Source: Aliarcobacter cryaerophilus ATCC 43158 (GTDB lineage: Bacteria; Campylobacterota; Campylobacteria; Campylobacterales; Arcobacteraceae). From it: a DNA stretch of 64,000 nt. The DNA lies in the NCBI RefSeq assembly GCF_003660105.1, contig NZ_CP032823.1:124001-188000 (forward strand). The letters run 5' to 3'. Numbering within the stretch: position 1 is the stretch's first letter; each line of letters starts with the position of its first letter. A model generated the notes under the pieces. It searched no databases. It was not told the origin of the DNA and saw only the letters and a program-made list of their open reading frames with translations. Made by a program: the position numbers and the translations under genes. Positions 13,221 through 48,596 of this stretch are shown here, one piece after another.

Positions 13221-13908
13221 TTGTGTTGCAATAATTCCTGCACGAGGTGGAAGTAAAAGAATTCCTAAAAAAAATATCAAAGATTTTCATGGAAAGCCAC
13301 TTATTGCTTATAGCATTGAAGCTGCTATTAAATCAAAACTCTTTTCTAAAGTAATTGTTTCAACAGATGATGAAGAAATAGCTAAAATTGCAAAAAGTTT
13401 TGGAGCAGATGTTCCATTTTTAAGACCAAAAGAGATAAGTGATGATTTTACAGGTACTGGTGCTGTTGTAAATCATGCAATAGAATTTTTAAAACAAATT
13501 GGTGAAAAAATAGATTTTGTTTGTACAATCTATGCAACAGCTCCTTTTTTACAAGAAAAATATTTAAAAGAAGGCTTTCTTAAACTAAAAAACTCAAATG
13601 CAAGAAATGCTTTTTCATGTACATCTATGCCATTTCCAATCCAAAGAACTTTTAAAATAACAAAAAACAATAGATGTGAAATGTTTTGTCCTGAGAATTT
13701 TTCTAAACGAAGTCAAGATTTAGAAGAGGCTTTTCAAGATGCTGGACAGTTTTACTGGACAAATTTAAATATAAAATCAGATGATATTATATTTGGTAAA
13801 GATAGTATTCCAATAGTTCTTCCAAGACATTTAGTTCAAGATATAGATACTTTAGAAGATTGGATTAGAGCTGAATTTATGTATGAAGCTATAAAAAGAG
13901 AATTGTAA
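13213..13908 (+). CDS. pseF: PseF, CMP-pseudaminic acid synthetase
   Basis: PseF activates pseudaminic acid with CTP, the final step before transfer to flagellin. The 231-residue protein starts MLNCVAIIPARGGSKRIPKKNIKDF, the nucleotide-binding signature of CMP-sugar synthetases, followed by HGKPLIAYSI. VSTDDEEIA, CTIYATAPFL and QDIDTLEDW are also present; the last is a PseF feature. It overlaps pseC by 8 nt and pseG by 1 nt (TAATG). A second CMP-sugar synthetase lies at 42999 in the legionaminic operon. Confidence 0.92.
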
Positions 13909-18700: not shown

Positions 18701-19117
18701 ATGAAAAAAGAAAAAATAGTTTTAACTTACGGTACTTTTGATATGTTTCATATAGGGCATTTGAATCTTTTAAATAGGCTTAAAAGCTTGGGTGACAAAC
18801 TCATAGTTGCTGTTTCAACAGATGAATTTAACTCAATAAAGGGTAAAAAGACTTTAATTCCTTTTGAGCAAAGAGCACTTATTGTTAAAAATTTAAAGTG
18901 TGTTGATATGGTAATAGCTGAAGAAAATTGGGAACAAAAAATTGATGATATAAAAAAATATAATGTTGATATTTTTGCAATGGGAAATGACTGGAAAGAT
19001 AAATTTGATTTTCTAAAAGATTATTGCGAGGTTATTTATTTACCAAGAACTCAAAATATTTCAACTACACAACTTAAAAAAGAGTTGAATAAATATTTAG
19101 GATTACCTGATGAATAA
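18701..19117 (+). CDS. Glycerol-3-phosphate cytidylyltransferase-like protein (TagD family)
   Basis: A 138-residue nucleotidyltransferase with YGTFDMFHIGHLNLL (HIGH at 17-20) and the closing ISTTQLKKEL segment typical of TagD/GCT proteins. TagD makes CDP-glycerol from CTP and glycerol-3-phosphate. Here the alcohol phosphate could be glycerol or another polyol. The next gene, overlapping by 8 nt, is LicD-like, so a CDP-activated group made here may be transferred as a phosphodiester to a glycan. Confidence 0.85.
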   Translation: MKKEKIVLTYGTFDMFHIGHLNLLNRLKSLGDKLIVAVSTDEFNSIKGKKTLIPFEQRALIVKNLKCVDMVIAEENWEQKIDDIKKYNVDIFAMGNDWKDKFDFLKDYCEVIYLPRTQNISTTQLKKELNKYLGLPDE

Positions 19118-20030
19118 AAAAGAAAAAATTATATTATTTGGCGCTAGTAGAGGTGGAGAGAATTTTATAAAACATAATAAAATAAAATATGAGATTTTAG
19201 CTATTGCTGATAATGATCAAAAAAGATGGGGAAGTGTTTTGGAAGGATTAAAAGTTATTAATCCAAAAGATATTTTAAAATATGATTTTGACAATATCTA
19301 TATTACTAGCCAGTGGGTAGATAGTATAACTTATCAGCTTACTAAAGATTTAAAAATATCTTTAGAAAAAATAAAAATACCTAAAAAATCTAGTTTAAAA
19401 GAGAGTTTTAAACCATTTGAACATGATGAAACATTAAAATTTGCTAGAGAGAGTTTGTGTAAAATAACGCAGTATTTATCAAATCACAATATCATAGCAA
19501 TCATAGATTCAGGAACAGCTCTTGGTATCGTTAGAGATAAAGACCTAATAAAATGGGATGATGATATAGATTTTGCTATAGACTCTAAAAGTTTTGAACA
19601 ACTTATTAGTTTAGCAAATGGATTAAAAGGGATATTACCTAAAAACCAATATTCAAAATGGAAATTAGAATTAATAAGTCTATCAAATGAAGATGTATGC
19701 TTGAGTTTAGAGCTTAAAAGTAGTGATTTAAATATGTTAAAAGAGTTTGAAATTAGCTTACAAAAAAGAACTATAAAAGATGGATTATCTCACCTTGACT
19801 CATCTGCTGGAATATTTTATGCACCAGCTTTACATTTTGAAAGATATGAGAGAGTAGATTCTTTTGATAGTTTTGTTTACCTTCCTTACAAAGTTGATGA
19901 TTTTTTAACTTTTATGTATGGAAACTATAAAGAGCCTAAAAAAGATACTTCTATTGAAAGTTATGATAATAGAGTAGTTCAAAAGAATAGTAATATAAAA
20001 TCTTTTGATGTGAGTAAAAAGATTATTTAG
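19110..20030 (+). CDS. LicD-like phosphotransferase with N-terminal Rossmann-like module
   Basis: A 306-residue two-domain protein. Residues 1-90 form a Rossmann-like module (IILFGASRGGENFI, then IADNDQKRWGSVLEG and VINPKDIL). Residues 110-290 carry the LicD/nucleotidyltransferase-fold signature: IIDSGTALGIVRDKDLIKW, with WDDDIDF at 149-155 giving the metal-binding acidic cluster. LicD proteins transfer phosphocholine or related groups from CDP donors to glycans, which fits the cytidylyltransferase just upstream. Its TAG overlaps the stop of the convergent gene by 4 bp. The transferred group is not known. Confidence 0.78.
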   Translation: MNKKEKIILFGASRGGENFIKHNKIKYEILAIADNDQKRWGSVLEGLKVINPKDILKYDFDNIYITSQWVDSITYQLTKDLKISLEKIKIPKKSSLKESFKPFEHDETLKFARESLCKITQYLSNHNIIAIIDSGTALGIVRDKDLIKWDDDIDFAIDSKSFEQLISLANGLKGILPKNQYSKWKLELISLSNEDVCLSLELKSSDLNMLKEFEISLQKRTIKDGLSHLDSSAGIFYAPALHFERYERVDSFDSFVYLPYKVDDFLTFMYGNYKEPKKDTSIESYDNRVVQKNSNIKSFDVSKKII

Positions 20031-21520
20031 ACGAAAGTAAAATCCGATTTATATAGTAGTTTCTTTGATTTAAATATTAAAAACTGGATACTATTTTTCT
20101 CTTCATTCAATTCAAAAGCTATATTTTTTATACCACTTATTTCCAGGTAATTTTTTAAAATACTATTCAAATTTTTGCTAGATGTAGATATAAACAATTC
20201 ATATTTTTTTTCTATACTTAGTCTAGATAAAGAGTCTATATTGTATAAAAGTTTTGTAATATTATTTGCAAACTTCAATGAATTATAAGGTAATAAGTTA
20301 TCTATTGGAATTATTTTTTTATACTTAATATTTATTTTTTCTAAATTACTTATGATATTTTCTTCTCTACTAAATGCTGTAATTAATATTTCATCTTTAA
20401 TACTTATATCTTTTTCAGAATGAAATTTATTAATATGTTGATATCTATTTGATAAAGATATATAATTTTGATCAATTATTTTTTTTATATTTTTTTCAAG
20501 ATTAGAATAAATGAGATATCCAACTTCTCCAAATCCATAAATGACTAAATTTTTATTAGATTTAAGCTCTTTCATTGATTTATGAAGAATTTCTAGATTT
20601 ACAAAAAAAATATTTGCTTTTTCATTTATTGGATGTTTTGTTTTATCTTCTTTTTTTAAATAATTTTCAATTAAATTTATATTGTAAGAAGTGTATTTTT
20701 TTAAAATTTCTTTATATACAAAGGTAGTTGGATTATACTCTGAATGAGACTTTATTAGAATCTTTTTTTTAATAAAAGGAGCATTGAATTTCTTTATTAT
20801 TAAGTCCCAAAAAAGATTAAAACTTCTTTTTTGTTCTAAGTTCTCTAAGCTATTTTCTTTAAAAGAAGATTTTAACTTTTGTAAAACTTTTTTTATGGGA
20901 ATATATGCAGAACATTTATATCCATGATTTATAAATAGATTCGCAAAACCCATTTCATAATTTTTAATGATTTGATTTTTATCTTCAAGTATGGTGCAAC
21001 TATTCCAAAAATCTTTATAAACATCACTTTGAATAAGCTTTTGATTTACAACCCAAAAAAAGCTTTCTATATGATAAGTTTGTTTAAAACTATCAGTCAT
21101 ACCCCAAAAATCAACTTTTTTTTTATTCATTTCTTTAAACATTTTTTTAGAATTTACTAAAGGAAAAAATATACTGTCATTTATATGTAAGATACTTTCA
21201 TAATCTTGATAATCTTTTACAAAGCTAAGTCCTGTTTTCCATGATATAAAGTCATAACCTATGTTTTTTCTAATGATACTAGTATGAAGATAATTTTTTA
21301 AGCTATCAAGTTCAAGTAAAGATATATTTTCTGATGTACTTACAAAGACAATATCAAATTTTAGTTTATGTAGTTTTTTAACCATATATTTTACATAATT
21401 TTCAATAACTTGATTTTTATCATAATGTGAAAGTATACAAAGTTTATTATTTTTGTTTGTATTTAGATAATTAGTATATTTTAGAATCAATTTTTCTTCA
21501 CTATTTTTCAATTTAATCAT
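20027..21520 (-). CDS. RgpF-like rhamnan synthesis glycosyltransferase with C-terminal Rossmann-like module
   Basis: A 497-residue protein. The N-terminal two thirds match the rhamnan synthesis F pattern (KNNKLCILSHYDKN, ENYVKYMVKKLHKL, RKNIGYDFISWKTGL, LHINDSIFFPLVN, WGMTDS). A separate segment near residue 320 (NLVIYGFGEVGYLIYSNLEK) looks like the Rossmann-like module also fused to the neighbouring proteins. RgpF-type enzymes work in polysaccharide chain assembly. It contains an A9 run (T9 on plus, 21116-21124) that could slip. It is the last gene of the minus-strand block. Confidence 0.72.
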   Translation of the reverse strand: MIKLKNSEEKLILKYTNYLNTNKNNKLCILSHYDKNQVIENYVKYMVKKLHKLKFDIVFVSTSENISLLELDSLKNYLHTSIIRKNIGYDFISWKTGLSFVKDYQDYESILHINDSIFFPLVNSKKMFKEMNKKKVDFWGMTDSFKQTYHIESFFWVVNQKLIQSDVYKDFWNSCTILEDKNQIIKNYEMGFANLFINHGYKCSAYIPIKKVLQKLKSSFKENSLENLEQKRSFNLFWDLIIKKFNAPFIKKKILIKSHSEYNPTTFVYKEILKKYTSYNINLIENYLKKEDKTKHPINEKANIFFVNLEILHKSMKELKSNKNLVIYGFGEVGYLIYSNLEKNIKKIIDQNYISLSNRYQHINKFHSEKDISIKDEILITAFSREENIISNLEKINIKYKKIIPIDNLLPYNSLKFANNITKLLYNIDSLSRLSIEKKYELFISTSSKNLNSILKNYLEISGIKNIAFELNEEKNSIQFLIFKSKKLLYKSDFTFV

Positions 21521-21544
21521 TTATTTGTTTATTATCCTATATCC

Positions 21545-23554
21545 CTATTTTAAACTAAAATCTTCTCTTATTAATGTTAAATTCGGATTATAAAAAGGAT
21601 CACCTTTTTCTAAAATTTTAGAATATCTTTTTTTTATATATTCAACTTCTCTTTTAAATCTATTCATTTTAAAAGAATTATTATCTTTCCCTCTAGATAT
21701 TGATTCGTAGTGATGTGCTTCACAGTATGGATTAAAAATATTTCTATAACCATTTTCTTGAGCTCTAAGACAAAAATCTACATCATTGAAAGCAACTTCT
21801 AAATTAATTTCATCTAAACCATTTAATTCTTTATAAATTTTAGTTTTTACCATTAAACAAGCAGCAGTTACAGCACTAACATTTTGTACAGAAATTAGTC
21901 TAAAAGAGTATCCAGTAGATTTATAATTATAATACTTATGTGAATGACCAGCACAGCCGTATATTCCAAGTATAACTCCTGCATGTTGAATTCTCTTATT
22001 AGGATAATATAATTTAGCTCCAACACAACCTATTTCTTCTCTTTGAGAATACATCAGCATCTCTTCTATCCAGTTTGAAGAAATTATTTCTATATCATTA
22101 TTTAATAAAATAATATGCTCACCTTCAACATAATTATCAACAGCATAATTATTAATTTTAGAATAGTTAAAAGGAATATTTAACTCATAAAATTTAATTC
22201 TTTTATCTTTTGATTCATATTCACTCATTAAATCAAAAATTCCTTTTTCTAGGCTATTATTGCTTATTCCAATTATTTGAAATTTTTTATAAGTTGTTTT
22301 ATCTAGAATCGAATCTATGCACATTTTTAGTAATTCTGGTTTGTCTTTAAATGGTATTATGATACTAACTAATGGTTGTTTATCTAAAATATATTCTATT
22401 TTATAAATTCCTGGATATTTACCATCTTCCACTTTTGCATTAAGGGATCTTCTTTTTAAAGCTTGTTTTATAACTTCTTTTTCAGAACTTTTAATATTGT
22501 TAAATTTATTTATATCACAGTTTTTATTTTTCCTTGAGTGATAAAGAACTTTTTGAATATGGTGTATTTTTGATGTTTTTTCTATTACTTTTAAATATAA
22601 ATCATATTCAAATGCTCCGTCTAATTCTGAATTATAGCTATTTGTCATATCAATAAATGATTTTTTAATAACAGTTAAATGTTTAATATAGTTGTACGAT
22701 AACAAAGTATCGGGAGAAAAATCTGGTTTAAAATGTGGTTCACAAAAATTATTATCCATATTTATTTTATCTTCATCACTATAAATAAAATCTGCTTTTG
22801 TTTCATTTATAGCTTTTACTACTTCATATAGTGCATTATTTGTAATTTGGTCATGACTGTAAACAATAGAGAAGTATTCACCTGATAATAGTTTACAAGC
22901 TTCATTTAGAGTACTAGATAAGTTTGGCTTTGTTTCTAAATATTTAATTCTTTTACTAGAGATTGATTTTAGATATTCAACTATTTTTTGATTTTTATTT
23001 GTATTACAAATTACACATATTTCCCAGTTTTGATACCATTGATTTTGTATAGAATTAATAGCTAAATTTAACCACTCTATATTTTCATAATAGTTAAATA
23101 ATACAATAGATATTAAAGGTTTTTTTTCAAAATTTAAAATAGTATTATTGATTGATTTTGTAATTGTTTGTTCTATGAATTTATATTTAATATTATAAGT
23201 TATTTCATTGTACGCATATATAGCTTTTATATTAGGATATTTATTAAGTTGAGATTTAATTTCATCTATAAAAGAACTTGTAATTATTACAATAAACTCT
23301 TGATTTTTATTAAATAATATTTCAGGATTATGAATAATATAAGATTCAACCTCTTTTCCATGTTTTTTAATATCATTGTCACATAAATAATCTGGATATA
23401 TATCACATCTTATGAAATCATATAATAATCTTTGAAATAAAATTGAAGTTCCAAAAAATACCAACTTACTATTTTCTTTGTTTTTTAATTTGTAAGAAAT
23501 AATTTCTTTACACTCTTTATTTAAAAGATGAGTGCATTTTTTAAATATTTGCAT
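21545..23554 (-). CDS. GT2 family glycosyltransferase, two catalytic domains plus N-terminal Rossmann-like module
   Basis: A 669-residue protein in three parts. Residues about 30-125 form a Rossmann-like module (KLVFFGTSILFQRLL, CDNDIKKHGKEVESY). A first GT2 domain follows (PLISIVLFNYYENIEWL, ADFIYSDEDKI). A second GT2 domain follows (PLVSIIIPFKDKPELL, GEHIILLNNDIEI, GCVGAKLYYPNKRIQHAGV, FNDVDFCLRAQENGYR). The last is like the C-terminal GT2 domain of large polysaccharide synthases. It overlaps the upstream gene by 14 nt. Part of its N-terminal module is encoded by a direct repeat of DNA in that gene. Sugar specificity is unknown. Confidence 0.82.
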   Translation of the reverse strand: MQIFKKCTHLLNKECKEIISYKLKNKENSKLVFFGTSILFQRLLYDFIRCDIYPDYLCDNDIKKHGKEVESYIIHNPEILFNKNQEFIVIITSSFIDEIKSQLNKYPNIKAIYAYNEITYNIKYKFIEQTITKSINNTILNFEKKPLISIVLFNYYENIEWLNLAINSIQNQWYQNWEICVICNTNKNQKIVEYLKSISSKRIKYLETKPNLSSTLNEACKLLSGEYFSIVYSHDQITNNALYEVVKAINETKADFIYSDEDKINMDNNFCEPHFKPDFSPDTLLSYNYIKHLTVIKKSFIDMTNSYNSELDGAFEYDLYLKVIEKTSKIHHIQKVLYHSRKNKNCDINKFNNIKSSEKEVIKQALKRRSLNAKVEDGKYPGIYKIEYILDKQPLVSIIIPFKDKPELLKMCIDSILDKTTYKKFQIIGISNNSLEKGIFDLMSEYESKDKRIKFYELNIPFNYSKINNYAVDNYVEGEHIILLNNDIEIISSNWIEEMLMYSQREEIGCVGAKLYYPNKRIQHAGVILGIYGCAGHSHKYYNYKSTGYSFRLISVQNVSAVTAACLMVKTKIYKELNGLDEINLEVAFNDVDFCLRAQENGYRNIFNPYCEAHHYESISRGKDNNSFKMNRFKREVEYIKKRYSKILEKGDPFYNPNLTLIREDFSLK
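23200..23411. repeat. Direct repeat, copy A (within 669-aa GT gene)
   Basis: This stretch of about 212 bp matches 23594-23805 at a constant offset of 394 bp with no gap. Most bases are identical by eye, for example TATATTAGGATATTTATT and several further long stretches; only scattered substitutions occur. It encodes part of the Rossmann-like module at the N-terminus of the downstream glycosyltransferase. Confidence 0.9.
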
Positions 23555-24587
23555 CTATTTTTCCAAATTTGGATTCTGTTTGTAATTTATAGCTTATTTC
23601 ATTGTATGAATATACTGCTTTTATATTAGGATATTTATTAAGTTGAGATTTAATTTCATCTATAAAAGAACTTGTAATTATTACAATAAACTCTTCATTT
23701 TTATTAAATAATATTTCAGGATTATAAATAATATAAGATTCAACTTCTTTCCCATGTTTATTAATATCATTGTCACAGATATAATTTGGAAATACATTAC
23801 ATCTTGAGAATTCATTTAAGATATTATTAAATAAATTTGAAACACCAAAAAAAACTAATTTATTTTTTAAATTATTTTGTATAGCTATTGAATTTTTATT
23901 TTTTGCAGATACATAAAATTTATTAGATAAATTATGTTTCTTTAATACTATATTTTGGCTAATAATATAAGATGATTTTTTAGATGTAATTCCTTCATCT
24001 AAATAATATTTTATGATTCCAGTTTCTTTAACATAAATACCTTGATGTCCTTTAAGAGCAATTGTAAGCCATAAGTCCCAATCTTGAAATCTTTTAATAT
24101 CAGGATCAAAATATGGGAAAAATTCTTTCTTTACCAACGAACAAGTATCAATATAATTTTTAAATATTAATTCTTCTAAAGAGAATTCTTTACTTTTATG
24201 ATAGTAGTTTTTACCAATTGGATGAGTTTCTGGATCCATTACTATAGCTTGATAATCAGTATATGCAAAAGCATATTTTTGATTATATTCAAGAGTTTTA
24301 TACAATATTTTTAAATGATTAGCCGGCATTATCACATCATCATCACATATAAATAAATATTTCTGAGTTGCTTGTCTTGCCCCTTTATTTCTTTTTTCTT
24401 GATTTGATAAATCTTCATCATCTATAATAATAATTTCTGCTGGATTATTAGCTTCTATAGATGGTAAAACAAATGCATTTACAAATTCTAGTCTTGATTT
24501 TATAACAACTAATACAACACTAACTGGTATAGCTTTTTTATTATTTAATATCTTCTCTTTATCTCTTTTTAACCAATCAAAGTACAT
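23541..24587 (-). CDS. GT2 family glycosyltransferase with C-terminal Rossmann-like module
   Basis: A 348-residue protein. The N-terminal 210 residues form a GT2 domain: IPVSVVLVVIKSRLEFVNAF, IIIDDEDLSNQEKRNKGARQA, the FICDDDVIMPANHLK DxD region, and FQDWDLWLTIALKG. Residues about 235-335 carry the Rossmann-like module (KLVFFGVSNLFNNIL, CDNDINKHGKEVESY) that is nearly repeated at the N-terminus of the next protein. The fusion orders differ (GT2-module here, module-GT2-GT2 there). It lies 9 nt after the ugd start-side gene in the same operon. Donor and acceptor are unknown. Confidence 0.8.
   Translation of the reverse strand: MYFDWLKRDKEKILNNKKAIPVSVVLVVIKSRLEFVNAFVLPSIEANNPAEIIIIDDEDLSNQEKRNKGARQATQKYLFICDDDVIMPANHLKILYKTLEYNQKYAFAYTDYQAIVMDPETHPIGKNYYHKSKEFSLEELIFKNYIDTCSLVKKEFFPYFDPDIKRFQDWDLWLTIALKGHQGIYVKETGIIKYYLDEGITSKKSSYIISQNIVLKKHNLSNKFYVSAKNKNSIAIQNNLKNKLVFFGVSNLFNNILNEFSRCNVFPNYICDNDINKHGKEVESYIIYNPEILFNKNEEFIVIITSSFIDEIKSQLNKYPNIKAVYSYNEISYKLQTESKFGKIDANI
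23594..23805. repeat. Direct repeat, copy B (within 348-aa GT gene)
   Basis: The partner of 23200-23411, gapless at an offset of 394 bp. It encodes the equivalent part of the C-terminal module of the upstream glycosyltransferase. Tandem arrangement and near-identity suggest a recent duplication or ongoing gene conversion. Confidence 0.9.
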
Positions 24588-24596
24588 AGTTATTAC

Positions 24597-25766
24597 CTAA
24601 TCATCATTTCTAAATATATCTCTAGTATAGACTTTTTCTTTTACATCCATGATAGAGTCACTTAATCTATTTGCCAGTATCACATCACTTATAGCTTTGA
24701 ATTCAACAATATTTTTAATAACTCTTGAGTTAAAAAAACTATCTTCTTTTAGAACTGGTTCATAAATTACTACTTCTATACCTTTTGCTTTTATTCTTTT
24801 CATTATTCCTTGTATTGCAGAGCTTCTAAAATTATCACTTCCACTTTTCATTACAAGTCTATATATACCTACAACCTTAGGATTTCTTTTTATAATACTA
24901 TCTGCTATAAAATCTTTTCTTGTTGAATTTGATTTTACAATAGCTTCTATTAAATTACTTGGTACTTCACTATAATTTGCTAAAAGTTGTTTTGTATCTT
25001 TAGGTAAGCAGTATCCACCATATCCAAAGCTTGGATTATTATAGTGTGTTCCAATTCTAGGATCTAGACCTACACCATCAATTATCTGTTTAGTATCAAG
25101 ATTATGTGTTTGAGCATAAGAGTCAAGTTCATTAAAGTATGCAACTCTCATAGCAAGGTAAGTATTTGAAAATAGTTTTATAGCTTCTGCTTCAGTTGAG
25201 TTTGTAAATAAAATTGGAATATCTTTTTTAATAGCACCAGCAGATAGTAGTGAAGCAAAAAGTTCAGCTCTTTTACTTTGTTCACCTACAATTATTCTAC
25301 TTGGGTACAAATTATCATATAAAGCTTTTCCTTCTCTTAAAAACTCAGGTGAAAAGATTATATTATTAGTATTGAATTTCTCTTTTAGACTTTTTGTATA
25401 TCCAACTGGAACTGTACTTTTTATAATCATAGTTGAATTTGGGTTTATCTCTAGCACATCTTTTATAACAGCTTCAACACTTTTAGTATTAAAATAGTTA
25501 GTTTCTGCATCATAATCTGTTGGAGTTGCTATTATTATAAAATCAGCATCTTTATAAGCTTCATTTTTATCTAAAGTAGCTTTAAAATTTAAAGTATCTT
25601 TTTGAAGATATACACTGATATCTTTATCTTCTATAGGAGATATTTTATTATTTATCATTTCTACTTTTTGTGGAATTATATCAAGAGCTATTACTTCATT
25701 ATGTTGAGCTAGTAATAGTCCATTTGATAGTCCTACGTAACCAGTACCTGCTATTGCGATTTTCAT
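24597..25766 (-). CDS. ugd: UDP-glucose 6-dehydrogenase family protein
   Basis: A nucleotide-sugar dehydrogenase of 389 residues. It has the NAD-binding [14 protein letters not shown] at 8-21, [14 protein letters not shown] (139-152), and the catalytic-cysteine motif [10 protein letters not shown] with Cys253. The length and spacing match short Ugd proteins (about 388 residues), which oxidise UDP-glucose to UDP-glucuronate for capsule or LPS synthesis; UDP-GlcNAc-type dehydrogenases are usually longer. It sits in the minus-strand glycan block between glycosyltransferases and two methyltransferases. UDP-glucuronate or a derivative may be a donor in this block. Confidence 0.88.
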
Positions 25767-32836: not shown

Positions 32837-34709
32837 TTCTTACCTTTTTAGATTTGATGTCAATTTTATCAAATATGCTATTAAAACTACTCAAAACTTC
32901 ACAAAGCTGTTGTTCTAAAATCTTATTTGATTCATTACTATTTAAAATACTATTATAAGGCAATATAAGTTTAAAAAATCTATCTAAAATATTACAAATC
33001 ATAGAGTTTGGATGTTTCTCAAAAACCATTTTAAAATCTTTATGAAAATTTTCTATTTTTATGGTATTTAATTTTTTAATCACTTTTTTTTCTTTTTCAA
33101 TATCTTTTTTATCAATATCTTCTAGATTTCTTTTGCTTATATTTTGAAGATTTTGTAAAAAATCATTTGTAAGAAGCTCCTTATTTAATTTTTCTAAATC
33201 ATCTTTTATCTCTTCTATTTTTAACGGTGTACTTCCTTTAAAATATGCTCCAAAGCCTAGAGTATAAACTTTTAAATAGTTTTTATGCTTTAAAATAATC
33301 TCTTGTGCACTATCTATCATATCTAAGTACTCTCTAAAAGTAGGGACTTCTTCTTCAAGATTTCCTTTGACATAAACAATATCTTCTCTAAAATCTCCAC
33401 TATTTTTTGCATTTAGATTTAGTTTTCTACTTGATTTATGAGTTCCTATATGGGTTTTACCATTTTTACTATCAATGCTCGCATCAACTCCCAAAAGATA
33501 AATTTCTTTAGCTCCAAGTCTAGCAATTATATCAATACCAATATCTCCAACAGTAACACCACTTAAAAAACCATAGTTAGAAAATAGCTCTAGTGCATTT
33601 TGCATAAAAAATATTTTTGTATCTTTTAGTTTTAAGAATAGCTCTGTATCAAGTTTTATAGAAGCTAAAATTATAGAGTCTTGATACATTTTAGAATCAG
33701 TATTAAACTGCTCAATCATTGGTTCTTTTTGACCATCAACAGCTAAAATAATATCTGGAATAATTTCTAAAATTATAAGGTGTTTTAAAACTGCACTTGA
33801 AGCTACTATTACAAATTTCTCTTGATTTAGATAAAGCCACTCTAAATTTTTTGCCAAAGATACCCCCGCACCTAAAAAAAGAACTTTTTTATTTTGAAAT
33901 AAATTTTGATTTTGTGATAAATCTATAATACTTTTTTTTTCTTCAAAAAAGTATTTATAACCCCTTTTTAGACTGATTATAAAATCACTAAATGGATAAC
34001 GCATTTGTGAACTATGAATAAAAATATTTTGTAACTCTTCTATTAAATATGAGTTATTTTCACCTGATAATTCAAAATGAATAATATGATTTAGCTGATA
34101 TTTATCTTCCAAAAACTTTTTTGTGATATTTTCTAAACCAAAACTATCTTCACTTATAGCAAAAAATAGTTTTGAATTTTTATTTAAAGATTCATAGTCA
34201 CACAAAAACAAAGATAGTCTAAAAATTTCAATATTTGGCTCGATTATTAAATAACTTTTTGCATTTAAATTATTGTGAAAATCATTTAGATGAACTCCAA
34301 GCAAAGTTCCTAGAAATATAAATTTATTTATTTTTATTTCTATATTTTCAAATTTTTTTATATATTCATTTAAATATATATAACTATTTATCTCACCTTC
34401 ATAGTGATTCTTCTTTTTTACTTGTTCCATTTTTATAAGATTGAAAGCATTTGAAAGTGAAAAGTTATTTACTCTATCTAAAGAGTCGCTAAAAGGCTCT
34501 CTTTTGTATAAATCTTTTTTTGTTTTTAAATCTATGAGCTTAAATTCATCATTTATAAACTCTAAAGAGTAGTTTTGGATATTTTGTTTCTCAATAAAAA
34601 CTATTTTTTCATAAAGATTTATATAATTTTTTTTGAAAAACTCTATATTTTTAAGATATATTTGTTCTAAAGTTTGTTGTAACTCTTCTAGTTGTTTTTG
34701 TTTATCCAT
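32829..34709 (-). CDS. Maf-family (DUF115) motility-associated glycosyltransferase
   Basis: A 626-residue protein of the motility accessory factor family, thought to transfer nonulosonic acids to flagellin. An N-terminal helical section is followed by the DUF115 core: KVLFLGAGVSLAKNLEWL, PDIILAVDGQKEP, VTVGDIGIDIIARLGAKEIY and LLGVDASIDSKNG. It lies at the start of the minus-strand block, divergent from legB. An A9 run (T9 on plus, 33932-33940) within the frame could allow slippage. A second, diverged Maf gene is at 44499. Confidence 0.88.
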   Translation of the reverse strand: MDKQKQLEELQQTLEQIYLKNIEFFKKNYINLYEKIVFIEKQNIQNYSLEFINDEFKLIDLKTKKDLYKREPFSDSLDRVNNFSLSNAFNLIKMEQVKKKNHYEGEINSYIYLNEYIKKFENIEIKINKFIFLGTLLGVHLNDFHNNLNAKSYLIIEPNIEIFRLSLFLCDYESLNKNSKLFFAISEDSFGLENITKKFLEDKYQLNHIIHFELSGENNSYLIEELQNIFIHSSQMRYPFSDFIISLKRGYKYFFEEKKSIIDLSQNQNLFQNKKVLFLGAGVSLAKNLEWLYLNQEKFVIVASSAVLKHLIILEIIPDIILAVDGQKEPMIEQFNTDSKMYQDSIILASIKLDTELFLKLKDTKIFFMQNALELFSNYGFLSGVTVGDIGIDIIARLGAKEIYLLGVDASIDSKNGKTHIGTHKSSRKLNLNAKNSGDFREDIVYVKGNLEEEVPTFREYLDMIDSAQEIILKHKNYLKVYTLGFGAYFKGSTPLKIEEIKDDLEKLNKELLTNDFLQNLQNISKRNLEDIDKKDIEKEKKVIKKLNTIKIENFHKDFKMVFEKHPNSMICNILDRFFKLILPYNSILNSNESNKILEQQLCEVLSSFNSIFDKIDIKSKKVRND

Positions 34710-43002: not shown

Positions 43003-43703
43003 GTAATGTTTTATGCACAATTTGTGCAAGAGGTGGAAGTAAAGGTGTTAAAAATAAAAACATCAAAGAACTTCATGGTAAACCACTTATTGCTTATACA
43101 ATCGAACAAGCAAAAGCATCAGGACTTTTTGAACATATTGTTATTAGTACAGATAGTGATGATATAGCAAATGTAGCAAAACAGTATGGGGCAGAAGTGT
43201 TTTTTAAAAGAAGTTCTGAAATGGCAAGTGATACAGCAGGTAAACTTGATGTGATAAGAGATGCTTTTAAAAGAAGTGAAGAGTATTATAATAAAACTTT
43301 TGATTATTTGATAGACTTAGATGCTACAGCACCACTTAGGCTGACAGAAGATATAATAGATTCATTTAATCAGTTTAAAGAAAATAACAATGATAACTTA
43401 ATCACAGCAATGCCAAGTAGGAGAAGTCCATATTTTAATCTTGTTGAGCAAGATGAAAATGGAAAGGTGTATTTATCAAAAAAACTAGATAACAAAATTA
43501 TTAGAAGACAAGATGCTCCAAAATCTTATGATATGAATGCATCGATTTATATATGGAAAAGAGATATTATTTTAAATGAAATATCTATTTTTTTAGAAAA
43601 AACAGGATTATATGTGATGCCAGAAGAGAGATCAATAGATATAGATACAGAGTTTGATTTTAAATTTGTAGATTTTTTAATGAAGGAAAATAAAAATGCT
43701 TAA
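42999..43703 (+). CDS. legF: LegF/PtmB-like CMP-nonulosonic acid synthetase
   Basis: A 234-residue CMP-sugar synthetase with ICARGGSKGVKNKNIKELHGKPLIAYT at the N-terminus, VISTDSDDIANVA, DLDATAPLRLTEDI, MPSRRSPYFNLVE and a closing SIDIDTEFDFKFVDFL. It should activate legionaminic acid (or a derivative) with CTP. Its paralogue PseF at 13213 serves pseudaminic acid. Overlaps of 4 nt upstream and 8 nt downstream fit translational coupling. Confidence 0.9.
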   Translation: MSNVLCTICARGGSKGVKNKNIKELHGKPLIAYTIEQAKASGLFEHIVISTDSDDIANVAKQYGAEVFFKRSSEMASDTAGKLDVIRDAFKRSEEYYNKTFDYLIDLDATAPLRLTEDIIDSFNQFKENNNDNLITAMPSRRSPYFNLVEQDENGKVYLSKKLDNKIIRRQDAPKSYDMNASIYIWKRDIILNEISIFLEKTGLYVMPEERSIDIDTEFDFKFVDFLMKENKNA

Positions 43704-46542: not shown

Positions 46543-46571
46543 AATAAAACTGGATTGTCTCCAGTTTTATT
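46543..46571. terminator. Bidirectional terminator between maf and flagellin
   Basis: A 12-bp perfect stem (AATAAAACTGGA / TCCAGTTTTATT) with a 5-nt loop between the convergent maf and flagellin genes. The right arm overlaps the last codon and stop of the flagellin gene. U-rich arms on both strands support termination of both transcripts. Confidence 0.8.
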
Positions 46572-47472
46572 GTAAAAGCCTTAACACATTCTGAGATACT
46601 GCATTTGACTGGCTAATTGCATAAGATCCAGCTTGCGATATAATATTTAGCTTGTTGAAGTTTGCACTTTCTTCAGCATAATCAACATCTCTAATAACTG
46701 ATTCAGCATTTTTTATATTTGTAGCTTGAGTCATAAGATTTCTAACTGCACTTTCAACTTGATTTTGAGTAGAACCTATATCACCTCTATAGCCATTTAG
46801 TTTTGTAATAGCACTATCTACATTATTCATATAAGCACTTGCCATTGTTCTTGTAAATCCATTTGTAGTTACTGTTTTACCATCACTAGATATTGTAGCA
46901 GTAGCTCCAGCTGATACATCAGTTTTTAAACTATTTAAAGAATAACCAGAAATATTCGCTTGAATAGATTTTGTACTAATTATATCTGTATTGCTCTCTC
47001 CAATTTGGAATGTTAAACCATCAGAACTAGCAGTATCAGTTGCTGCACTTCCCATACCTTTTTGTAAAAGAGCAGTACCATTGTAGTTTGTTTGTTTTGC
47101 AATATTATTTAATTGATCAAGCAATTTATTAACATCTTTTGCAATAGCAACCCTACCAATAGAAGAAGTAGTATCAGTATTTGCCTGTATTAGTTTTGCT
47201 TTTACCGTATCTAGAATTTTTGATTGCTCAGCCATAGATTTATCAGCAATTTGAAGTAACGCAATAGCTGAGTTACCATTTGAAATACCTTGATTTAAAG
47301 ATGTAACTTGAGTTCTAAGTTTATCAGCAATTGCAAGACCAGAAGCATCATCGCTAGCTTTATTGATTTTTAAACCAGTAGAAAGCCTTTCTAAAGAGCT
47401 AGATATACTTCTATTCGTATTCGTTGCTGCTTCTTGGGCTGTAAGAGAAGATATATTTGTGTTAATTTTCAT
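46567..47472 (-). CDS. Flagellin, distal copy
   Basis: A 301-residue flagellin, the filament subunit, exported by the flagellar type III system without a cleaved signal. It has the conserved D0/D1 ends (INTNISSLTAQEAATNTNRS; EESANFNKLNIISQAGSYA; a C-terminal NVLRLLQ) and only a short, Ser/Thr-rich centre, so no D2/D3 domains. There is no cysteine. It differs from the 47633 copy at roughly 30 of 301 positions with no gaps. An AAGGAC ribosome site precedes the ATG. It may be flaA or flaB; the sequence alone does not settle which. Confidence 0.94.
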   Translation of the reverse strand: MKINTNISSLTAQEAATNTNRSISSSLERLSTGLKINKASDDASGLAIADKLRTQVTSLNQGISNGNSAIALLQIADKSMAEQSKILDTVKAKLIQANTDTTSSIGRVAIAKDVNKLLDQLNNIAKQTNYNGTALLQKGMGSAATDTASSDGLTFQIGESNTDIISTKSIQANISGYSLNSLKTDVSAGATATISSDGKTVTTNGFTRTMASAYMNNVDSAITKLNGYRGDIGSTQNQVESAVRNLMTQATNIKNAESVIRDVDYAEESANFNKLNIISQAGSYAISQSNAVSQNVLRLLQ

Positions 47473-47546
47473 AAGTTTGTCCTTAGTTTTGATTTATTTC
47501 ACAGTGTAAATAAAACTTAATTACATAATTATTGCAAACTAATTCA

Positions 47547-47632: not shown

Positions 47633-48538
47633 TTATTGAAGTAGTCTTAGAACATTTTGTTGAGTTGCATTTGATTGGCTAATCGCATACGACCCAGCTT
47701 GAGATATAATATTTAACTTATTAAAGTTTGCACTCTCTTCAGCATAATCAACATCACGGATAATAGACTCGGCCGCCTTTATATTTGTAGATTGAGTCAT
47801 AAGATTTCTAACCGCACTTTCAACTTGGTTTTGAGTAGAACCTATATCCCCTCTAAATCCATTTAGCTTTGTAATAGCATTATCAATTTGAAGTTGTGCA
47901 GCACTAGCCATTGTTCTTGTAAATCCATTTGCAGTTACTGTTTTACCATCACTAGAAACTGTAGCAGTAGCTCCAGCAGATGCATTGTCTTTTAAACTAT
48001 TTAAAGAATAACCAGTAACATTTGCTTGAATAGATTTTGTACTAATTATATCTGTATTGCTCTCCCCAATTTGGAATGTTAAACCAGCAGAACTCACAGT
48101 ATCAGTTGCCGCACTTCCCATACCTTTTTGTAAAAGAGCAGTACCATTGTAGTTTGTTTGTTTTGCAATATTATTTAATTGATCAAGTAATTTATTAACA
48201 TCTTTTGCAATAGCAACTCTACCAACTGATGAAGTAGTATCCGTATTAGCTTGAATTAATTTAGACTTTATAGTGTCTAGAATTTTTCCTTGCTCAGCCA
48301 TAGATTTATCAGCAATTTGAAGTAAAGCAATAGCTGAGTTACCATTTGAAATACCTTGGTTTATAGATGTAACTTGAGTTCTAAGTTTATCAGCAATTGC
48401 AAGACCAGAAGCATCATCAGAAGCCTTGTTGATTCTTAAACCAGTAGAAAGTTTTTCTAAAGAACTAGAAATACTGTTGTTTGTGATTTTAGCAGCTTCT
48501 TGAGCTCCTAGAGAAGATATGTTTGTATTAATTCTCAT
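47633..48538 (-). CDS. Flagellin, proximal copy
   Basis: A 301-residue flagellin with the same architecture as its downstream partner: a conserved N-terminus (INTNISSLGAQEAAKITNNS), a short central region (SAGATATVSSDGKTV) and the NVLRLLQ end. It has a long leader of about 140 nt with a TATAAT box (48685-48690), two small hairpins and an AAAGGA ribosome site. Its own terminator lies downstream, so the two copies are probably transcribed separately. Surface-exposed Ser/Thr in the centre are candidate glycosylation sites for the nonulosonic acids made by the flanking operons. Confidence 0.94.
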   Translation of the reverse strand: MRINTNISSLGAQEAAKITNNSISSSLEKLSTGLRINKASDDASGLAIADKLRTQVTSINQGISNGNSAIALLQIADKSMAEQGKILDTIKSKLIQANTDTTSSVGRVAIAKDVNKLLDQLNNIAKQTNYNGTALLQKGMGSAATDTVSSAGLTFQIGESNTDIISTKSIQANVTGYSLNSLKDNASAGATATVSSDGKTVTANGFTRTMASAAQLQIDNAITKLNGFRGDIGSTQNQVESAVRNLMTQSTNIKAAESIIRDVDYAEESANFNKLNIISQAGSYAISQSNATQQNVLRLLQ

Positions 48539-48596
48539 AATAAATCCTTTGTGAATTTGTAAAATAGTTTATGAATATTTAAAAAATATCCAAGCC

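What the first reader, a model, noticed from the sequence alone, without database searches (positions are those of the whole stretch)
23200..23805. 212-bp near-identical direct repeat inside two adjacent glycosyltransferase genes
23200-23411 and 23594-23805 align without gaps at an offset of 394 bp. The repeat encodes the same module at the C-terminus of one protein and the N-terminus of the next. Recombination between copies would delete 394 bp; since 394 is not a multiple of three, it would shift frame relative to the two genes and could create a new fusion or truncation.
Basis: seen in the sequence. Interest (0 to 1): 0.55.

Follow-up and report, generated by a model that had tools for sequence, protein, structure and literature searches.

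The report
Converted repeat joining two sugar-transferase genes
Two neighbouring sugar-transferase genes carry nearly the same small accessory domain at the end of one and the start of the next; the DNA suggests the two copies have exchanged sequence, and a full crossover would fuse the two enzymes in frame, a small new case of a known way bacteria vary their surface sugars.

Summary
It encodes a Rossmann-like module at the C-end of gene A (348 aa GT2) and the N-end of gene B (669 aa, two GT2 domains); both genes lie on the minus strand and overlap by 14 nt. Identity is mosaic: 126 of 128 in the core with no synonymous change in 42 codons, against 54 of 78 at one edge. In 1578 module pairs from 17 loci this core is not generally better conserved. 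Best reading: paralogous modules homogenised by gene conversion, as between H. pylori jhp0562 and jhp0563. The module belongs to a widespread accessory domain on many glycan enzymes of Campylobacterota, resembling in fold the nucleotide-sensing domain of WbaP. No strain data were available, so deletion in nature is untested. New member of a known kind.

The parts
23587..23881 (-). repeat copy A: C-terminal Rossmann-like module of gene A
   Evidence: 295 nt family; codon alignment; profile match, C-terminal
23193..23487 (-). repeat copy B: N-terminal Rossmann-like module of gene B
   Evidence: (profile match, N-terminal)
23223..23350 (-). inferred conversion tract in copy B (126 of 128 identical to the other copy; 79-nt perfect run)
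23617..23744 (-). inferred conversion tract in copy A (same stretch, +394)
23541..24587 (-). gene A: 348 aa, family-2 glycosyltransferase plus C-terminal module
   Evidence: Pfam PF00535 8.7e-7
21545..23554 (-). gene B: 669 aa, N-terminal module plus two family-2 glycosyltransferase domains
   Evidence: Pfam PF00535 3.3e-26, two stretches
23541..23554 (-). 14-nt overlap of the end of gene A and start of gene B
   Evidence: coordinates
19110..20030 (+). LicD-type ORF with a third, diverged N-terminal copy of the module (19113-19382)
   Evidence: Pfam LicD 1.4e-11; profile match
20027..21520 (-). RgpF-type ORF with a fourth, more distant module-like stretch (20285-20560); not found by the profile search
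   Evidence: Pfam RgpF 7.1e-31; 33% over 93 aa, E 6e-8, to a module-bearing ORF of L079

Best explanation
The repeat is a pair of paralogous accessory domains, not a mobile element or a dedicated switch. A Rossmann-like module (about 92 aa) sits at the C-end of glycosyltransferase A and the N-end of the co-directional, overlapping glycosyltransferase B. The two modules are each other's closest relatives (shown) and diverged to about 60% protein identity outside the core (shown). Gene conversion then overwrote about 130-150 bp of one copy with the other (inferred from mosaic synonymous divergence). The pair remains a substrate for homologous recombination: conversion keeps both genes; a crossover would delete 394 bp and give one in-frame GT-module-GT-GT protein of 882 aa (shown in silico only). 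The module most likely works as a nucleotide-sensing and/or dimerising regulatory domain like the PF13727 domain of WbaP (inferred from fold). The locus is a nonulosonic-acid glycosylation island next to flagellin genes, so any effect would be on surface glycan (inferred).
For: Core 23225-23350: 42 codons, 0 of 23.3 synonymous sites changed, against 11 changes in about 29 synonymous sites outside it; Fisher p 0.0011 on rounded sites; a 79-nt run without mismatch reached in 4 of 200000 shuffles of the 41 mismatches, and the 42 unchanged third positions in 46 of 200000. The core is not a generally conserved part: over 1578 module pairs core minus N-flank identity averages -0.022 (sd 0.102); A-B is +0.344, reached by 2 pairs including A-B itself. 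Outside the core A and B are still each other's best match among 59 modules (22 of 36, next best 15 and 17 of 36). No RNA structure or Rfam family explains the core. In-frame fusion. Fold: predicted model pLDDT 92.5; WbaP residues 144-243 Z 10.8, rmsd 2.2, 88 aligned. WbaP domain binds uridine nucleotides and stabilises the dimer (PMC10942596, passages). Precedent for conversion between neighbouring glycosyltransferase genes in vivo: PMC7448279 (passages). recA, pseB, pseC, pseF, pseG, pseI and two flagellins in the window.
Against: One genome only: the tract is inferred from two copies of one assembly, without a third allele, so donor and direction are unknown. The tract is short (about 128 nt) and the tests on synonymous sites rest on few sites. 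The fold match is weak in Foldseek (best E 6.7e-3, none at 1e-3 or below), and Rossmann folds are common. None of 59 modules in 17 loci is internal (44 C-terminal, 15 N-terminal), so the fused GT-module-GT form has no natural parallel seen here and may be inactive. Gene B's first GT domain has SHDQ where relatives have DNDD or DHDD and may itself be impaired.
Confidence: 0.7

Rival explanations
1. Recent partial tandem duplication of 394 bp inside an ancestral single GT-module-GT-GT gene split it into A and B; the edges then diverged fast.
For: The frame difference between the genes equals 394 mod 3, exactly what such a duplication would leave, and the two modules are sisters.
Against: The 99 nt between the copies resemble neither the sequence before copy A (1310 of 2000 shuffles score as high) nor after copy B (855 of 2000), where a 394-bp tandem unit should repeat them. 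Uniform age does not fit 0 synonymous changes in the core and pS 0.28-0.51 outside. None of 59 modules is internal.
Confidence: 0.15
2. Strong purifying selection on the core keeps it identical; no exchange took place.
For: Only two residues differ in the core, which holds two strands and two helices of the predicted fold.
Against: Selection on protein does not remove synonymous changes (0 of 23.3 sites), and in other module pairs the core is no more conserved than the N-flank. No RNA structure above shuffles.
Confidence: 0.06
3. A programmed diversity switch: the repeat is maintained so that cells alternate between separate A and B and a fused A-B enzyme.
For: In-frame fusion at 294 of 295 points and preservation of both genes in the duplication product; H. 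pylori precedent with rare in-frame hybrids (PMC6892558, passages).
Against: No variant seen; deletion is not readily reversible; copies are only 86% identical overall; no homopolymer longer than 8 nt in the two genes.
Confidence: 0.08

Closest known systems
Helicobacter pylori jhp0562 / jhp0563 (beta-1,3-galT) intragenomic recombination
   Same: Two adjacent glycosyltransferase genes of a Campylobacterota surface-glycan locus share homologous stretches; conversion-like tract between them seen in an isolate from human infection (PMC7448279, passages); hybrids, mostly frameshifted, rarely in frame (PMC6892558, passages).
   Different: There whole glycosyltransferases are paralogues with n and c modules; here only an accessory domain is shared, placed C-terminal in one and N-terminal in the other, so a crossover joins two whole catalytic parts in frame. 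No strain variation was observed here.
Cytoplasmic PF13727 domain of large phosphoglycosyl transferases (Salmonella WbaP) and PglF-like dehydratases
   Same: Same Rossmann-type fold by VIA-align (8t53, Z 10.8); accessory domain of glycan enzymes; the 26-module profile also finds a 582-aa 4,6-dehydratase-type ORF (L106).
   Different: No PF13727 hit for the window modules; attached at a terminus of GT2 proteins; nucleotide binding untested.
PglD_N, C2185-like_N, Methyltransf_14 C-terminal domain (Pfam)
   Same: Weak profile matches of related modules: Methyltransf_14 in 7 of 26, C2185-like_N in 6 of 26, PglD_N in 4 of 26.
   Different: Gene A module reaches only 16.5 bits against a cut-off of 23.5 for Methyltransf_14.
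Multi-domain O-antigen polymerases, fused or split (Klebsiella O4/O7)
   Same: Catalytic modules can be on one polypeptide or on interacting proteins (PMC11231755, passages), so a fused A-B enzyme is conceivable.
   Different: Different enzymes; no interaction of A and B tested.

Membership tests
Intragenomically recombining adjacent glycosyltransferase genes (jhp0562/jhp0563 type) | adjacent glycosyltransferase genes with a homologous stretch long enough for recombination | tested here: met
   295 nt at 86%, perfect runs of 79 and 29 nt
Intragenomically recombining adjacent glycosyltransferase genes (jhp0562/jhp0563 type) | mosaic signature of exchange between the copies | tested here: met
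Intragenomically recombining adjacent glycosyltransferase genes (jhp0562/jhp0563 type) | rearranged forms in other strains or in populations | not testable with these tools
   one genome per species held; gene A matched only in the window's genome, 1 of 104 in the family; none confirmed in genome contigs
Intragenomically recombining adjacent glycosyltransferase genes (jhp0562/jhp0563 type) | the two genes are whole-length paralogues | tested here: not met
   only the module is shared at high identity
Intragenomically recombining adjacent glycosyltransferase genes (jhp0562/jhp0563 type) | additional phase-variable homopolymer at the module junction | tested here: not met
   only three runs of 8 A/T in 21501-24600, none at the junction of the genes
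WbaP-type nucleotide-sensing domain (PF13727) | Rossmann-type fold like WbaP 144-243 | tested here: met
   Z 10.8, rmsd 2.2, 88 aligned; Foldseek rank 11, E 3.5e-2
WbaP-type nucleotide-sensing domain (PF13727) | profile match to PF13727 | tested here: not met
   not among Pfam hits of genes A and B at 0.1 or of 26 modules at 0.01
WbaP-type nucleotide-sensing domain (PF13727) | uridine-nucleotide binding and feedback inhibition | not testable with these tools
   known for WbaP (PMC10942596); untested here
Plain 394-bp tandem duplication | whole 394-bp unit repeated | tested here: not met
   similarity stops after 295 nt; 99-nt spacer unlike either flank

The most novel reading that the evidence does not exclude
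The module is a general docking and nucleotide-sensing domain that ties successive enzymes of a glycan assembly line together; conversion keeps the A and B copies matched so that the two transferases pair, and occasional crossover hard-wires the pair into one in-frame enzyme. Recurrent C-end/N-end module pairs in consecutive genes of three other loci (two of them alike) would be the same arrangement.
Probability: 0.1. Interest if true: 0.68.

Novelty: new member of a known kind. Interest (0 to 1): 0.38.

Why it matters
It shows how a shared accessory domain, rather than a shared catalytic domain, can act as a recombination platform between glycan enzymes: exchange leaves the enzymes intact, while a crossover would weld two transferases in frame. 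It also draws attention to a Rossmann-like accessory module, largely without a Pfam model of its own, that sits at an end of many kinds of surface-glycan enzymes in Campylobacterota (family 1, 2 and 9 glycosyltransferases, LicD, RgpF, several methyltransferases, radical SAM, HAD, capsule synthesis). If it senses uridine nucleotides as the WbaP domain does, whole glycan pathways could be under one feedback signal, which is directly testable.

Tried and rejected
Fusion ancestor: I looked for a natural GT-module-GT-GT gene. Matches to gene B exist in 18 of 298 phylum genomes. I fetched regions of 10 of them; blastp of both modules against their ORFs gave no hit at E 0.05, and the N-ends of 6 ORFs from 5 genomes, read in full, carry other parts. 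Gene A has a match at E 1e-5 only in the window's genome (1 of 104); in 397 phylum genomes 30 have weak partial matches to its GT or module part. It has no confirmed relative in genome contigs and none in plasmids. The last genome-contig scan, with a 4-module alignment, gave 2 loci, the same two relatives already seen (a Helicobacteraceae MAG and a Sulfurimonas MAG).

DNA-level constraint on the core: Rfam 0 hits, RNA fold z 0.54 and -0.49; plus-strand frames open for at most 53 codons in 23101-23950. Rejected.

PDB by sequence: only implausible hits (BRR2, E 0.029). Foldseek gave no hit at E 0.001 or below.

Limits: the 17 loci were chosen because they hold modules (12 regions picked by eye from the truncated list, 4 of the 5 fetched, and the window), so the clustering of modules is not an unbiased estimate. 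The 134 of 298 genomes include 4,6-dehydratase-like ORFs of about 580 aa; I did not count them apart. The species was not identified; 'Arcobacter-like' is recalled from gene content, not from a call.

Full report
Observation. The repeat exists as described and extends further. In a self-comparison of the window it is the second strongest match (E 2.8e-96) after the two flagellin genes. In the whole 2.1-Mb genome the protein module occurs in these two places and, at 28% identity, in a LicD-type ORF of the same window.

Anatomy. Both genes read on the minus strand. Gene A (24587-23541, 348 aa) is a family-2 glycosyltransferase with the module at its C-end; gene B (23554-21545, 669 aa) has the module at its N-end followed by two family-2 domains. 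They overlap by 14 nt. Upstream of A lies a UDP-glucose dehydrogenase-type gene, downstream of B an RgpF-type gene and, convergent, a LicD-type gene. The wider window holds pseB, pseC, pseF, pseG, pseI, a NeuB- and a NeuC-type gene, two MptE-like (motility accessory factor, recalled) proteins, two flagellins and recA: a nonulosonic-acid, probably flagellin, glycosylation island.

Frame. But A and B are themselves in different frames: their starts are 1033 nt apart, 1 mod 3, the same remainder as 394. A deletion therefore brings A's head and B's body into one frame. I computed the product for each of the 295 crossover points: 294 give one 882-aa ORF and one (23870) gives a stop. The reverse product, tested at one point, keeps A and B and adds a 135-aa module-only ORF.

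Mosaic. The copies are not evenly diverged. By stretches: 24 of 30, 126 of 128, 50 of 59 and 54 of 78 identical. In the core (42 codons) there is no synonymous difference over 23.3 sites and two nonsynonymous ones; outside it pS is 0.28 to 0.51. Fisher's test on rounded sites gives p 0.0011; the 79-nt run arises in 4 of 200000 shuffles of the mismatches, the run of 42 unchanged third positions in 46 of 200000. To ask whether the core is simply a conserved part of the domain I aligned 59 modules from 17 loci: over 1578 pairs with enough columns, core identity minus N-flank identity averages -0.022 (sd 0.102), while A-B stands at +0.344, reached by two pairs of which one is A-B (pairs are not independent). 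Outside the core A and B remain each other's best match, 22 of 36 against at most 17 of 36 for any other high-scoring module. So the two modules are sister copies of some age, part of which was overwritten recently: gene conversion. The flagellin pair in the same window shows similar blocks without synonymous change (by eye).

Origin. A plain 394-bp tandem duplication within a fused gene would repeat the whole unit, but the 99-nt spacer resembles neither flank. Relatives of B's two catalytic domains (matches in 18 of 298 phylum genomes; six ORFs from five genomes read) carry other N-ends, and no ORF in the ten fetched regions matched either module by blastp at E 0.05, so B's module looks like an addition. 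Gene A has a match only in the window's own genome among 104 of the family at E 1e-5.

The module. A profile from 26 modules finds matches in 134 of 298 phylum genomes at E 1e-4, 4,6-dehydratase-like ORFs included. In the 17 loci examined, 59 ORFs carry it, 44 at the C-end, 15 at the N-end, none inside. The scanned carriers are family 1, 2 and 9 glycosyltransferases, LicD, TylF-, FkbM- and other methyltransferases, radical SAM, HAD-type and capsule-synthesis proteins. In L079, L113 and L114 a C-terminal module in one gene is directly followed by an N-terminal one in the next, 357-373 nt apart, but diverged; L113 and L114 look like the same arrangement. The window pair is by far the most alike (score 203; next within-locus pair 78.5, in L121, and best between-locus pair 98.5). 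Pfam gives only weak matches.

Fold. The model built from ten window and relative modules has pLDDT 92.5 and pTM 0.84, alternating strands and helices of Rossmann type. Foldseek has no hit at 1e-3; best are 3nkl and Rex proteins. VIA-align puts the cytoplasmic domain of Salmonella WbaP first (Z 10.8, rmsd 2.2, 88 aligned), with 2g6t, Rex, 3nkl and sugar N-acetyltransferases close behind. In WbaP that domain (PF13727) is stabilised by UMP, UDP and UTP, helps dimerisation and probably mediates feedback (PMC10942596, passages). I take this as the likeliest role of the module, marked as inference: a shared fold shows no function.

Known parallels. In H. pylori, jhp0562 and its downstream paralogue jhp0563 recombine; a conversion-like tract identical to the neighbour was found in an isolate from human infection (PMC7448279, passages), and hybrids occur, most of them frameshifted and a few in frame (PMC6892558, passages). 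The present case works alike but is not a close member: only the accessory domain is shared, and the geometry favours in-frame fusion. Searches that listed no report of this in Arcobacter-like bacteria: (listings only). Searches for a description of the module: (listings; PMC11231755, PMC10942596 and PMC12802240 read in passages). These searches are narrow and cover open-licence papers only.

Verdict. What is worth following is the module itself and whether strains carry the in-frame fusion.

Noticed in passing
window 46567-47474 and 47633-48540: Two adjacent flagellin genes, 87% identical over 908 nt, with blocks free of synonymous change beside diverged blocks, consistent with conversion between them as well.
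   Followed up: partly
window 21545-23554 (gene B, first GT domain): The acidic motif reads SHDQ where related proteins have DNDD or DHDD; the first GT2 domain of gene B may be inactive or changed in specificity.
   Followed up: no
L113 1-17001 (G259:C1:185500-202500): Seven of 14 non-overlapping ORFs of 150 aa or more carry the Rossmann-like module, including family 1, 2 and 9 glycosyltransferases, two kinds of methyltransferase and a HAD-type protein.
   Followed up: partly
L121 9351-12051 (G007, same genus): Two consecutive genes, glycosyltransferases by appearance (not scanned), both with C-terminal modules 38% identical in protein; the second most similar within-locus module pair.
   Followed up: no
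L042 3350-7375 (G352): A 1341-aa ORF holds two tandem GT2-GT2 units, each related to gene B's catalytic half.
   Followed up: no
window 13233-13412 / 43019-43198 and 34206-34331 / 45083-44958: Diverged repeats (70-73%) between a pseF gene and a second cytidylyltransferase-like gene (the latter recalled, not scanned) and, inverted, between the two MptE-like genes of the island.
   Followed up: no
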